Source: Hyalangium ruber
GTDB lineage: Bacteria; Myxococcota; Myxococcia; Myxococcales; Myxococcaceae
DNA: 64,000 bases
Assembly: GCF_034259325.1 (NCBI RefSeq)
Contig: NZ_JAXIVS010000002.1
Span: 310,001 to 374,000, forward strand
Direction: 5' to 3'
Shown here: positions 53,065 through 56,949 of the stretch, one piece after another
How the letters are laid out: each line of letters begins with the position of its first letter
Numbering within the stretch: position 1 is the stretch's first letter
Notes under the pieces: model-generated
Database searches by the model: none
Told to the model about the DNA's origin: nothing
Seen by the model: the letters and a program-made list of their open reading frames with translations, nothing else
Program-made: the position numbers and the translations under genes

Positions 53065-54069
53065 ATGCGGCTCCCCATCGTGGGCATCTCCCTGGGGGAT
53101 GTGTCGGGCATCGGCCCGGAGGTGACTGCTGGAGCGCTCGCGCTCCCGCGAGTCCGCCGGGCGCTGGTGCCGGTGGTGTTCGGCGATGGGCCGACGCTGG
53201 AGCGCTTCCCCCTCTTCCGAAAGTACGCGCGCGCCACGCCGGAGACGCTGGGCCGGGTAACCGGGCCCACGGTGTGCGCAGTGACGGCGCTGGCCGAGAA
53301 GGAGCGCGTGCCCGGCAAGCCCACGCGGGAGGGTGGCCGGGCGCAGTACGCCTATGTCATGGCGGCCATCGCGGCGGCGCGCGCGGGGCACGTGGACGCG
53401 CTGTGTACGGCGCCGGTGTCCAAGGAGCAGATCTCCCGCGCGGGCATTCCGTTCATGGGGCACACGGAGGTGCTCGCCGAGGCGTTCGGCGCCGAGGTGA
53501 TGATGCTGATGGACGGGCCCCGGGTGCGCATCGCGCTGGCCACCAACCACGTGCCCCTGTCCGCGCTGCCGAAGCTGCTCACGGTGGAGAAGCTCACCGA
53601 GCAGCTCCGGCTGATGTCCCGCGAGCTGGCGCCGGTGGTGGGGCGCCGCCCGCGCATCGCCGTGCTGGGGCTCAACCCGCACGCGGGCGAGGGCGGGCTG
53701 CTGGGACGCGAGGAGGTGGAGATCATCTCCCCGGCCATCCGCAAGGCTCGCGCGGCGAAGGTGGATGCGCACGGACCGGTGCCGGCGGACGGGCTCTTCG
53801 CGCGACCGGATGCCATCGGCTACGACGCGGTGCTGGCGATGTACCACGACCAGGGGCTCATCCCGGCCAAGGCGCTGGACTTCGAGCGCACGGTGAACGT
53901 GACGCTGGGGCTGCCGGTGCCGCGCACCTCGCCGGACCACGGCACCGCGTACGCGCTGGCGGGCACGGGCAAGGCGAGCCGCGTGCCCATGGTGGAGGCC
54001 CTGCTCAAAGCGGCACTGCTCGCCTCAAGTGCTCGACGAGGTCCTCCCCGTCGCGCTCCGGGTCGATGA
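53065..54069 (+). CDS. pdxA: 4-hydroxythreonine-4-phosphate dehydrogenase
   Basis: 334 residues. PdxA family motifs: VGISLGDVSGIGPEV at the N-terminus, TAPVSKEQISRAGIPFMGHTE with metal and substrate residues, LNPHAGEGGLLGREE, and YDAVLAMYHDQGLIPAK followed by GLPVPRTSPDHGTAY. It is an NAD-dependent enzyme of pyridoxal 5'-phosphate synthesis. ATG at 53065 has GAGGAG eight bases upstream; GTG at 53050 is in frame but less likely. Its last 65 bases overlap the convergent [2Fe-2S] protein gene. Confidence 0.92.
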   Translation: MRLPIVGISLGDVSGIGPEVTAGALALPRVRRALVPVVFGDGPTLERFPLFRKYARATPETLGRVTGPTVCAVTALAEKERVPGKPTREGGRAQYAYVMAAIAAARAGHVDALCTAPVSKEQISRAGIPFMGHTEVLAEAFGAEVMMLMDGPRVRIALATNHVPLSALPKLLTVEKLTEQLRLMSRELAPVVGRRPRIAVLGLNPHAGEGGLLGREEVEIISPAIRKARAAKVDAHGPVPADGLFARPDAIGYDAVLAMYHDQGLIPAKALDFERTVNVTLGLPVPRTSPDHGTAYALAGTGKASRVPMVEALLKAALLASSARRGPPRRAPGR

Positions 54070-54307
54070 GCGTCACGTGCGTGTCGTCGAGCGCCTCTTC
54101 TCGACGCACCATCACGCTGACGAGTCCCACGGGGCAGTAGCCCAGACACCCCGTGGGCCCCAGGCGCGTGCGCTCCCGCAGCCCGTGCGCGGCCAAAGTC
54201 TCGCGGATGCGGCGCGGCAGATCGATGCCCCCAGCCTCCGTCCGCAGCCGGAGGAGGCAGCGGTGGCAGAACTTGAGCTGTATGTCCCCGGAGGCCGGTT
54301 CACTCAT
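54005..54307 (-). CDS. Thioredoxin-like [2Fe-2S] ferredoxin domain protein
   Basis: 100 residues. Cysteines at 14 and 17 (FCHRC) and at 54 and 58 (GPTGCLGYCPVG) match the ligand pattern of thioredoxin-like [2Fe-2S] proteins, similar to the NuoE C-terminal region and CbiX-type small ferredoxins. It is probably a cytoplasmic electron carrier or sensor; the partner is unknown. ATG at 54307 has AGGT upstream. It converges on and overlaps pdxA by 65 bases, which encode its C-terminal helix. Confidence 0.77.
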   Translation of the reverse strand: MSEPASGDIQLKFCHRCLLRLRTEAGGIDLPRRIRETLAAHGLRERTRLGPTGCLGYCPVGLVSVMVRREEALDDTHVTLIDPERDGEDLVEHLRRAVPL

Positions 54308-55852: not shown

Positions 55853-56124
55853 ACCGCTCCCCCCACACGCCCCACACAGCCCCGACCCAATCCGGGCGTT
55901 AAAAGTAAGGACGGCTGGAAAGCGCGCCACCTGAGTGTTCACCCCTGCGCAGCACTTCCTTCCGCTACTCACCAACACCGCAAAGAAGCGTTCGGTGTCG
56001 CGTGGGTGGGATGCGCGGCTTCACCCTGGAGGGAGACGATGATGACGTGCCGGAGACACGGAATAGCGCCGCACTTCCCAGGACTACTGAAGCCCATGCC
56101 AGAATTTCTTGTCCCGGAGGGCTC

Positions 56125-56283
56125 ATGCGTTGGGTTGCCACTCTGCTGGCCGTCTTGTGGAGCCTGAGCGCCAAGGCTCAAGAGTCGAAGCTCGAACTGG
56201 CCCAGGTGGCCTGTACGAACACCCATGAATGCTGCCTGCTCCGTAACCCGGGCATGCTCGTGAAGCTTCTCCCGGGCGAATAG
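56125..56283 (+). CDS. Signal-peptide ORF ending in an in-frame amber codon
   Basis: 52 residues: signal peptide (MRWVATLLAVLWSLSAKAQ), then a Cys-rich mature part with ACTNTHECCLLRNPG. GGAGG lies five bases upstream, so translation starts here. It ends TAG at 56281-56283. After two further codons the same reading frame continues from ATG at 56290 for 219 codons. The two together would make one secreted protein of about 274 residues, so this may be the 5' half of a gene split by a nonsense mutation. Base composition is lower in G/C than its neighbours. No family recognised. Confidence 0.55.
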   Translation: MRWVATLLAVLWSLSAKAQESKLELAQVACTNTHECCLLRNPGMLVKLLPGE

Positions 56284-56289
56284 ACAGCG

Positions 56290-56949
56290 ATGGAAGATCC
56301 CTTCACGGCACAGATGCTGCTCCCAGATCTCCCTAATGATGAACCCTGGTTTGAACTGAAGTTCCATCTCCAGGAACTGCATGGGGATTCGCGCGACACC
56401 CTTCAGAAACTCCAGGAGCTGAAGCCGCTACTGGGTATCCGGGGCGAATCCCATCAGCTCCATGAAGAGCTCTTCACTCTCTATGGAGCAGTCCACCACC
56501 ATGCCAAGGACCATGCTCGACGTGCCATGGAACTGGCTGGCCACCTGCTCACCCGCACACCGGAGAGCGTTCCGGAATGGAAACCCGGCGCTGAAGGCAC
56601 CGCGAACTTCGACATCCCCTCCGAGGTCAGCGCCTGTACCTCGCTCGAAGATTCCCGGACCCAGCTGGCCTTTCACATGAACGCGCTGTTTGCCTCCGTG
56701 GACAGGGCACACCATTCGGTTCTTCGAGCCGCAGGCGCACGCGGCTCGATGCGCCAGGTGCTGGAGGCGGTACATGCGGAAGCCAGCGCCGCCTTCGCAT
56801 CGCTCCATGACGATGCGCTGCCTCACGCCCGCGACGCCTATTGCTGGTCCGAGCAGCATTGGCGTCTCGCCGATCCTGAAGCTGCCGCTGCTCACGACCA
56901 ACGCTCGGCGGAGATTGACGCTGAACTCGCTGCCTTGGAGAAGGAGTAG
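56290..56949 (+). CDS. Unknown protein continuing the frame of the signal-peptide ORF
   Basis: 219 residues, mainly helical, His-rich near LFTLYGAVHHHAKDHARRAMEL, with a C-terminal acidic helix (SAEIDAELAALEKE). There is no convincing Shine-Dalgarno before ATG 56290, and the frame is the same as that of the ORF ending in TAG at 56283. Either it is reached by translational coupling or readthrough, or it is the remnant of a longer secreted protein. G/C content is clearly below that of neighbouring genes, which suggests recent acquisition. I do not recognise the family. Confidence 0.5.
   Translation: MEDPFTAQMLLPDLPNDEPWFELKFHLQELHGDSRDTLQKLQELKPLLGIRGESHQLHEELFTLYGAVHHHAKDHARRAMELAGHLLTRTPESVPEWKPGAEGTANFDIPSEVSACTSLEDSRTQLAFHMNALFASVDRAHHSVLRAAGARGSMRQVLEAVHAEASAAFASLHDDALPHARDAYCWSEQHWRLADPEAAAAHDQRSAEIDAELAALEKE

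What the first reader, a model, noticed from the sequence alone, without database searches (positions are those of the whole stretch)
56125..56949. Secreted-protein gene split by an in-frame amber codon
A 52-codon ORF with good Shine-Dalgarno and signal peptide stops at TAG 56281; after two codons the same frame runs 219 codons from ATG 56290, which lacks its own ribosome site. Joined, they make one 274-residue exported protein. The region has lower G/C than its surroundings. It may be a fresh pseudogene, a readthrough gene or an acquired toxin-like gene.
Basis: seen in the sequence. Interest (0 to 1): 0.55.

Follow-up and report, generated by a model that had tools for sequence, protein, structure and literature searches.

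The report
Shield-like gene beside a deleted partner
What looked like one gene cut by a stop codon is really two neighbouring genes of a soil myxobacterium: a probable protective (immunity) gene, still intact, and the stump of its exported, probably toxic partner, most of which has been deleted.

Summary
The 219-codon gene (ORF2, 56290-56949) has relatives in 6 of 95 other genomes of its family. In all six a separate upstream gene (ORF1), or its remnant, ends 6-16 nt before it; in five of six the two lie in different frames. TAG 56281 is therefore the ordinary stop of ORF1. ORF1 is intact in five relatives (173-189 aa): signal peptide, a short Cys module and a conserved C-terminal domain. The window's 52-codon ORF is its first ~43 codons fused in frame to its last few, about 121 codons being lost. 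Another genome (G004) lost ORF1 independently, again keeping ORF2. The Cys module recurs in many exported myxobacterial proteins with other C-termini, usually followed by a partner gene; one partner class matches the Pfam immunity family Imm11, and two module copies follow an Rhs core end. Best explanation: an orphan immunity gene left after deletion of an exported polymorphic toxin. Two genes and the deletion are shown; toxin and immunity functions are inferred, and no known toxin or immunity profile matches ORF1 or ORF2.

The parts
56115..56119 (+). Shine-Dalgarno GGAGG of the remnant ORF
   Evidence: read
56125..56283 (+). Remnant of the exported partner gene (ORF1): signal peptide and first three Cys of the Cys module, fused in frame to the last codons of the gene
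   Evidence: first ~43 residues aligned with five intact relatives; tail matched at DNA level to G040; intact ORF1 of 173-189 aa
56251..56262 (+). Deletion junction (between the residues RNPG and the tail KLLPGE); about 121 codons (363 nt) fewer than in G040
   Evidence: by eye
56281..56283 (+). TAG: native stop of ORF1, 6 nt before the start of ORF2, the same spacing as TAA in G040
56290..56949 (+). ORF2, intact 219-codon protein, predicted all-helical, no signal peptide by eye; probable immunity protein, now orphan
   Evidence: relatives; substitution pattern; model with mean pLDDT 87.8

Best explanation
The locus is the remains of a two-gene cassette. In the ancestor, ORF1 made an exported protein (signal peptide, Cys module, C-terminal domain) and ORF2, starting a few bases after its stop, made a cytoplasmic partner. 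I infer that ORF1 is a toxin passed to neighbouring bacteria and that ORF2 protects the producer and its kin. Here an in-frame internal deletion removed about two thirds of ORF1 (shown against relatives), disarming it, while ORF2 stayed intact (shown). The surviving 52-codon ORF keeps the strong ribosome site and stops 6 nt before ORF2, so it probably now acts only as a leader peptide whose translation delivers ribosomes to ORF2 (inferred). ORF2 would still protect against kin that carry the intact pair (inferred).
For: Two separate genes in 6 of 6 relatives, out of frame in 5. ORF1 intact in G003, G005, G007, G040 and G080; remnants in G000 and G004, with no full copy found elsewhere in either (which scored 24 candidates per genome). 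Empty site in G002; about 570 nt lost in G004 compared with G007. The Cys module is shared (hhalign probability 90, E 1.4e-6, over the module only) with exported proteins carrying other C-termini; 75 of 81 distinct module ORFs among the fetched loci have an ORF of at least 80 aa starting -14 to +60 nt from their stop. Eight of the nine HNH-like-type partners found were scanned: at E 0.01, 8 of 8 match Pfam Imm11 and 7 of 8 Gmx_para_CXXCG. The module follows an Rhs core end in two proteins (TIGR03696, E 1.5e-4 and 1.7e-3). ORF2 average dN/dS is 0.24 against G040.
Against: No toxin or immunity profile matches ORF1 or ORF2 (best chance-level E 0.017). ORF1 has no recognised catalytic motif and its model is poor (pLDDT 44). 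Continued selection on ORF2 after the deletion is not shown: polarised counts are 10 synonymous to 20 nonsynonymous on the window branch against 14 to 21 for G040. The Imm11 match of the first member is just under Pfam's cut-off (21.7 against 22.1 bits), and the two Rhs matches are under the family cut-off (22.2 and 18.8 against 32.5 bits). Partner specificity is only partly shown: the automatic C-terminus clustering lumped several types into one cluster, inside which partners differ (881 of 1960 same-cluster pairs share a partner class). Some of the 75 partners are chance ORFs (for example L040, L121). The tail match is short, and the program alignment did not place it at the end. One isolate only: an assembly error in ORF1 is not excluded.
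Confidence: 0.68

Rival explanations
1. One gene interrupted by a fresh amber mutation, or read through at TAG, making a 274-residue exported protein.
For: The two ORFs share a frame in the window and in G040 and are only two codons apart.
Against: G040 has a stop at the same place (TAA); in G003, G005, G007, G080 and the G004 remnant the two units are in different frames; the upstream protein in five relatives is a complete 173-189 aa protein with its own conserved tail.
Confidence: 0.02
2. ORF1 and ORF2 are an exported protein and a cytoplasmic partner with a non-toxic role (for example an envelope or signalling pair); ORF1 was lost because it was dispensable.
For: No toxin domain is recognised; the commonest partner class of module proteins is the DUSAM domain, of unknown function.
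Against: The mix-and-match architecture, the Imm11-type partner class, the two copies behind an Rhs core end, and two independent losses of ORF1 with ORF2 kept.
Confidence: 0.25
3. The 52-codon ORF is now a functional secreted Cys peptide, not a dead remnant.
For: Start, ribosome site, signal peptide and frame are all kept.
Against: The fourth Cys of the module is lost; none of the six relatives has the same short form; the G004 remnant lacks the signal peptide altogether.
Confidence: 0.05

Closest known systems
SitA/SitI toxin-immunity pairs of myxobacteria (PMC5562445, PMC8546572; passages read)
   Same: Exported protein with a shared N-terminus and variable C-terminus; partner gene directly downstream; accessory DNA within myxobacteria.
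   Different: ORF1 is 173-189 aa, with no room for a ~375-aa escort domain and, by eye, no lipobox; neither ORF matches a Sit model; delivery unknown.
Orphan immunity genes, e.g. T6SS immunity arrays of Vibrio cholerae (PMC5361080; passages read)
   Same: An intact partner gene kept after loss of the effector.
   Different: There effectors are mostly displaced by incoming modules; here an internal deletion leaves a stump that still reaches the native stop.
Imm11 / Gmx_para_CXXCG immunity families (Pfam PF07791, PF09535)
   Same: Partners of other Cys-module proteins (those with a GQNHHIISRP-type C-terminus) match them.
   Different: ORF2 itself does not match; it is predicted all-helical.
DUSAM domain (TIGR02267 / DUF2379)
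   Same: The commonest partner class of Cys-module proteins in the loci looked at.
   Different: ORF2 does not match it.

Membership tests
Read-through or stop-split single gene | Both parts in one frame in relatives, or a sense codon at the stop | tested here: not met
   Gaps of 8, 8, 14, 16 and 13 nt in 5 of 6 relatives; TAA at the same place in the sixth
SitA toxins | Lipoprotein signal with lipobox Cys | tested here: not met
   By eye on the five intact ORF1 proteins; no signal-peptide program was run
SitA toxins | ~375-aa N-terminal escort domain | tested here: not met
   The whole ORF1 is 173-189 aa
SitA toxins | C-terminal nuclease domain | tested here: inconclusive
   No Pfam or NCBIfam match to intact ORF1 of G040 and G003
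SitA toxins | Transfer by outer membrane exchange | not testable with these tools
   Needs a transfer assay
Polymorphic toxin-immunity pair (general) | Shared N-terminus joined to varied C-termini | tested here: met
Polymorphic toxin-immunity pair (general) | Partner gene directly downstream | tested here: met
   Gap of 6-16 nt in the five loci with intact ORF1
Polymorphic toxin-immunity pair (general) | Partner class specific to the C-terminus | tested here: inconclusive
   0 of 668 pairs from different C-terminus clusters share a partner class, but one lumped cluster holds several partner classes
Polymorphic toxin-immunity pair (general) | ORF1 toxic, ORF2 protects | not testable with these tools
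   Needs expression assays
Orphan immunity gene | Partner intact, toxin absent in the whole genome | tested here: met
   No full ORF1 found in G000 or G004 (24 candidates scored in each); ORF2 without internal stop in both
Imm11 / SitI6 | Profile match of ORF2 | tested here: not met
   No match
DUSAM domain | TIGR02267 or DUF2379 match of ORF2 | tested here: not met
   No match

The most novel reading that the evidence does not exclude
Myxobacteria carry an undescribed polymorphic toxin class built on a four-cysteine N-terminal module, with type-specific immunity partners that include the uncharacterised DUSAM family and the all-helical ORF2. In this strain the toxin was disarmed by an in-frame deletion that kept the stump as a translation leader for the immunity gene.
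Probability: 0.4. Interest if true: 0.62.

Novelty: new member of a known kind. Interest (0 to 1): 0.4.

Why it matters
It turns an apparent sequencing oddity into a testable case of toxin loss with immunity kept, seen twice independently. The shared Cys module gives a handle on a large set of exported myxobacterial proteins, and it suggests a function (immunity) for DUSAM-domain proteins, on which two searches of the open-licence library found no paper.

Tried and rejected
Pfam, NCBIfam and PADLOC scans of ORF1 and ORF2: no credible match (best E 0.017, TPR_9). Solved-structure sequence search: best E 0.029. Foldseek of the ORF2 model: nothing at E 0.001 or better; VIA-align 2 best Z 8.7 (rmsd 3.5, 118 aligned) among generic helical bundles, read as a common arrangement only. 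Viral contigs: no relatives of either ORF. First scan of genome contigs with the window protein: none; second with an alignment: two Archangium loci. The ORF1 model was too poor to search with. Neighbourhoods: 66 of 96 genomes have a relative of the desaturase-like gene; of the 30 such loci fetched, only G000 and G040 carry ORF2 beside it. G042 has the PdxA-like and TonB-like side without cassette or desaturase in the 8.2 kb looked at. ORF1 C-terminus against the HNH-like C-terminus: hhalign aligned the N-terminal module only, so no nuclease claim is made. Weak further ORF2 matches (G003:C1:2893096, E 4.2e-4, one TAG inside; G036, E 0.0053) were not followed. Five DUSAM rows not over the family cut-off were dropped before the count, whose chance figure is a rough uniform-placement estimate. 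In one search C-terminus clusters are single-linkage and merge several visible types through a shared linker. In one search nine partners were found; the ninth (L121) has no clear start and was left out of the alignment scanned. Gene names such as desaturase, PdxA, TonB-like, ApaH-like and cytochrome P450 are recalled from the look of the sequences and come from no call.

Full report
OBSERVATION. The two ORFs, the TAG, the two-codon spacer, the strong ribosome site in front of the first ORF and its lack in front of the second, and the low G+C are as described. The window is part of a 10.8-Mb genome, G000.

TWO GENES, NOT ONE. The 219-aa protein (ORF2) has relatives in 6 of the other 95 genomes of the family; a search of 195 genomes of the phylum found no further genome (7 of 195 including its own, E 0.001). 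Upstream of ORF2 each of the six has a separate coding unit: intact ORF1 in G003, G005, G007, G040 and G080, a short remnant in G004. The ORF1 stop lies 6 nt (G040), 8 (G003, G005), 14 (G007), 16 (G080) or 13 nt (G004 remnant) before the ORF2 start; in the window it is 6. Since 8, 13, 14 and 16 are not multiples of three, the units are in different frames in five of six relatives, whatever start codon ORF2 uses. In G080 ORF2 is cut by a contig end, so only its first 55 codons are seen next to ORF1. TAG 56281 is the native stop of ORF1.

WHAT THE 52 CODONS ARE. Intact ORF1 (173-189 aa) has a signal peptide, a module of four conserved Cys, and a C-terminal domain with invariant residues such as H110, W111, W112, E114, K116, N121, K127, R130 and R132 (the G080 start may lie further upstream). 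The window ORF matches the first ~43 residues and then jumps to the tail KLLPGE, which I match by eye to NLLPRE of G040; the DNA alignment pairs the same stretch (its N-terminal part is misplaced), while the protein alignment did not put the tail at the end. The result is about 121 codons fewer than in G040, in frame. No full ORF1 was found elsewhere in G000 or G004 (24 candidates scored in each). In G004 about 570 nt are missing compared with G007, from just behind the preceding gene to the last ~13 codons of ORF1, with ORF2 intact. The two losses are in different genera and have different end points, so I take them as independent. Archangium G002 lacks both genes: its ApaH-like gene is followed after about 90 nt by the right flank, so the insertion includes ORF1, ORF2 and about 350 nt more; G006 shows other DNA there. 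The pair is an accessory cassette, at different places in Archangium and in the window/G040 lineage.

ORF2. It predicts as a confident all-helical protein (mean pLDDT 87.8, three-sequence alignment) and resembles only generic helical bundles. Against G040 pS is 0.58 and pN 0.22 (dN/dS 0.24); the other ORF2 pairs give 0.21-0.47. Polarised counts in the lineages without ORF1 do not differ visibly from their intact sisters (window 10 synonymous/20 nonsynonymous, G040 14/21; G004 13/20, G007 7/10), but numbers are small and do not prove continued selection.

WHAT THE CASSETTE RESEMBLES. The ORF1 profile also hit the N-termini of other proteins (32 of 145 genomes at E 0.05). A profile of the Cys module alone hits 57 of 92 family genomes, with 16 copies in the window's genome, the remnant included. 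It sits behind export or lipoprotein signals, as I read them, in small proteins with several kinds of C-terminus, and twice directly behind an Rhs core end (TIGR03696, under the family cut-off on the pieces scanned), the place where Rhs proteins join their variable domain (established knowledge). Of 81 distinct module ORFs among the fetched loci, 75 have an ORF of 80 aa or more starting within -14 to +60 nt. Of the 73 that could be clustered on both sides, 68 fall in five recurring partner classes: DUSAM-type 39, a DWW-type 15, Imm11-type 8, ORF2-type 4, DUF6968-type 2 (class names from example members). Pairs of loci in different C-terminus clusters never share a partner class (0 of 668), but one lumped cluster holds the DUSAM, DWW and Imm11 types together, so 881 of 1960 same-cluster pairs share a class and strict specificity is not shown. 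Eight Imm11-type partners were scanned one by one: 8 of 8 match Imm11 and 7 of 8 Gmx_para_CXXCG at E 0.01. Their exported proteins end in a conserved GQNHHIISRP...YQKWHR domain that looks HNH-like to me (recalled; no profile matched). hhalign joins ORF1 to that group over the module only.

MECHANISM. Shown: two genes, deletion, intact ORF2, shared module, downstream partners. Inferred: ORF1 is an exported anti-kin toxin, ORF2 its immunity protein, and the stump a translation leader. The stump keeps the ribosome site, the frame and the stop-to-start spacing of G040, so ribosomes ending at 56283 could restart at 56290. An in-frame outcome has a one-in-three chance anyway, so selection for coupling is only a suggestion.

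COMPARISON. It works like the Sit pairs (passages of PMC5562445, and PMC8546572) and like orphan immunity genes (passages of PMC5361080), but I do not file it as a Sit member: no room for the escort domain, no lipobox by eye, no profile match. Literature searches (listings only, except the three papers named) showed no description of this cassette or of a DUSAM function; one search lists one paper that names Gmx_para_CXXCG (PMC8163844, listing only). The library holds open-licence papers only.

VERDICT. A refuted headline with a sound observation, and a moderately interesting real story: a probable orphan immunity gene behind the stump of its exported partner, belonging to a wide Cys-module set of exported proteins.

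Noticed in passing
G000, G036, G040, G002: 19 of 30 DUSAM-domain (TIGR02267) genes over the cut-off have a Cys-module gene within 700 nt upstream on the same strand, against about 0.01 expected by a rough estimate: DUSAM proteins may be immunity partners.
   Followed up: partly
L031/L127 (G090:C267) and L050 (G050:C81): The Cys module follows directly behind an Rhs core end (TIGR03696, E 1.5e-4 and 1.7e-3, both under the family cut-off), followed by an unknown C-terminus.
   Followed up: partly
L136 (G024:C99): A 253-aa open frame joins a Cys-module protein to what looks by eye like its DUSAM partner: a fusion or frameshift case.
   Followed up: no
L014:4654-6327: A 557-aa ORF, ATPase-like by eye, lies between the ApaH-like gene and ORF1 in G003 but not in G005 or G007: a further insertion at the same spot.
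   Followed up: no
L213 (G006), behind the ApaH-like gene: Different DNA (by eye the start of another exported ORF) sits where G003, G004, G005 and G007 carry the ORF1-ORF2 cassette or its remnant, suggesting an integration hotspot.
   Followed up: no
window 54005-54307: A 100-aa Cys-containing ORF on the minus strand overlaps the end of the PdxA-like gene; it is next to that gene in 5 of 10 relatives looked at (G068, G062, G063, G014, G018) and was not found in G036, G039, G042, G007 and G034.
   Followed up: no
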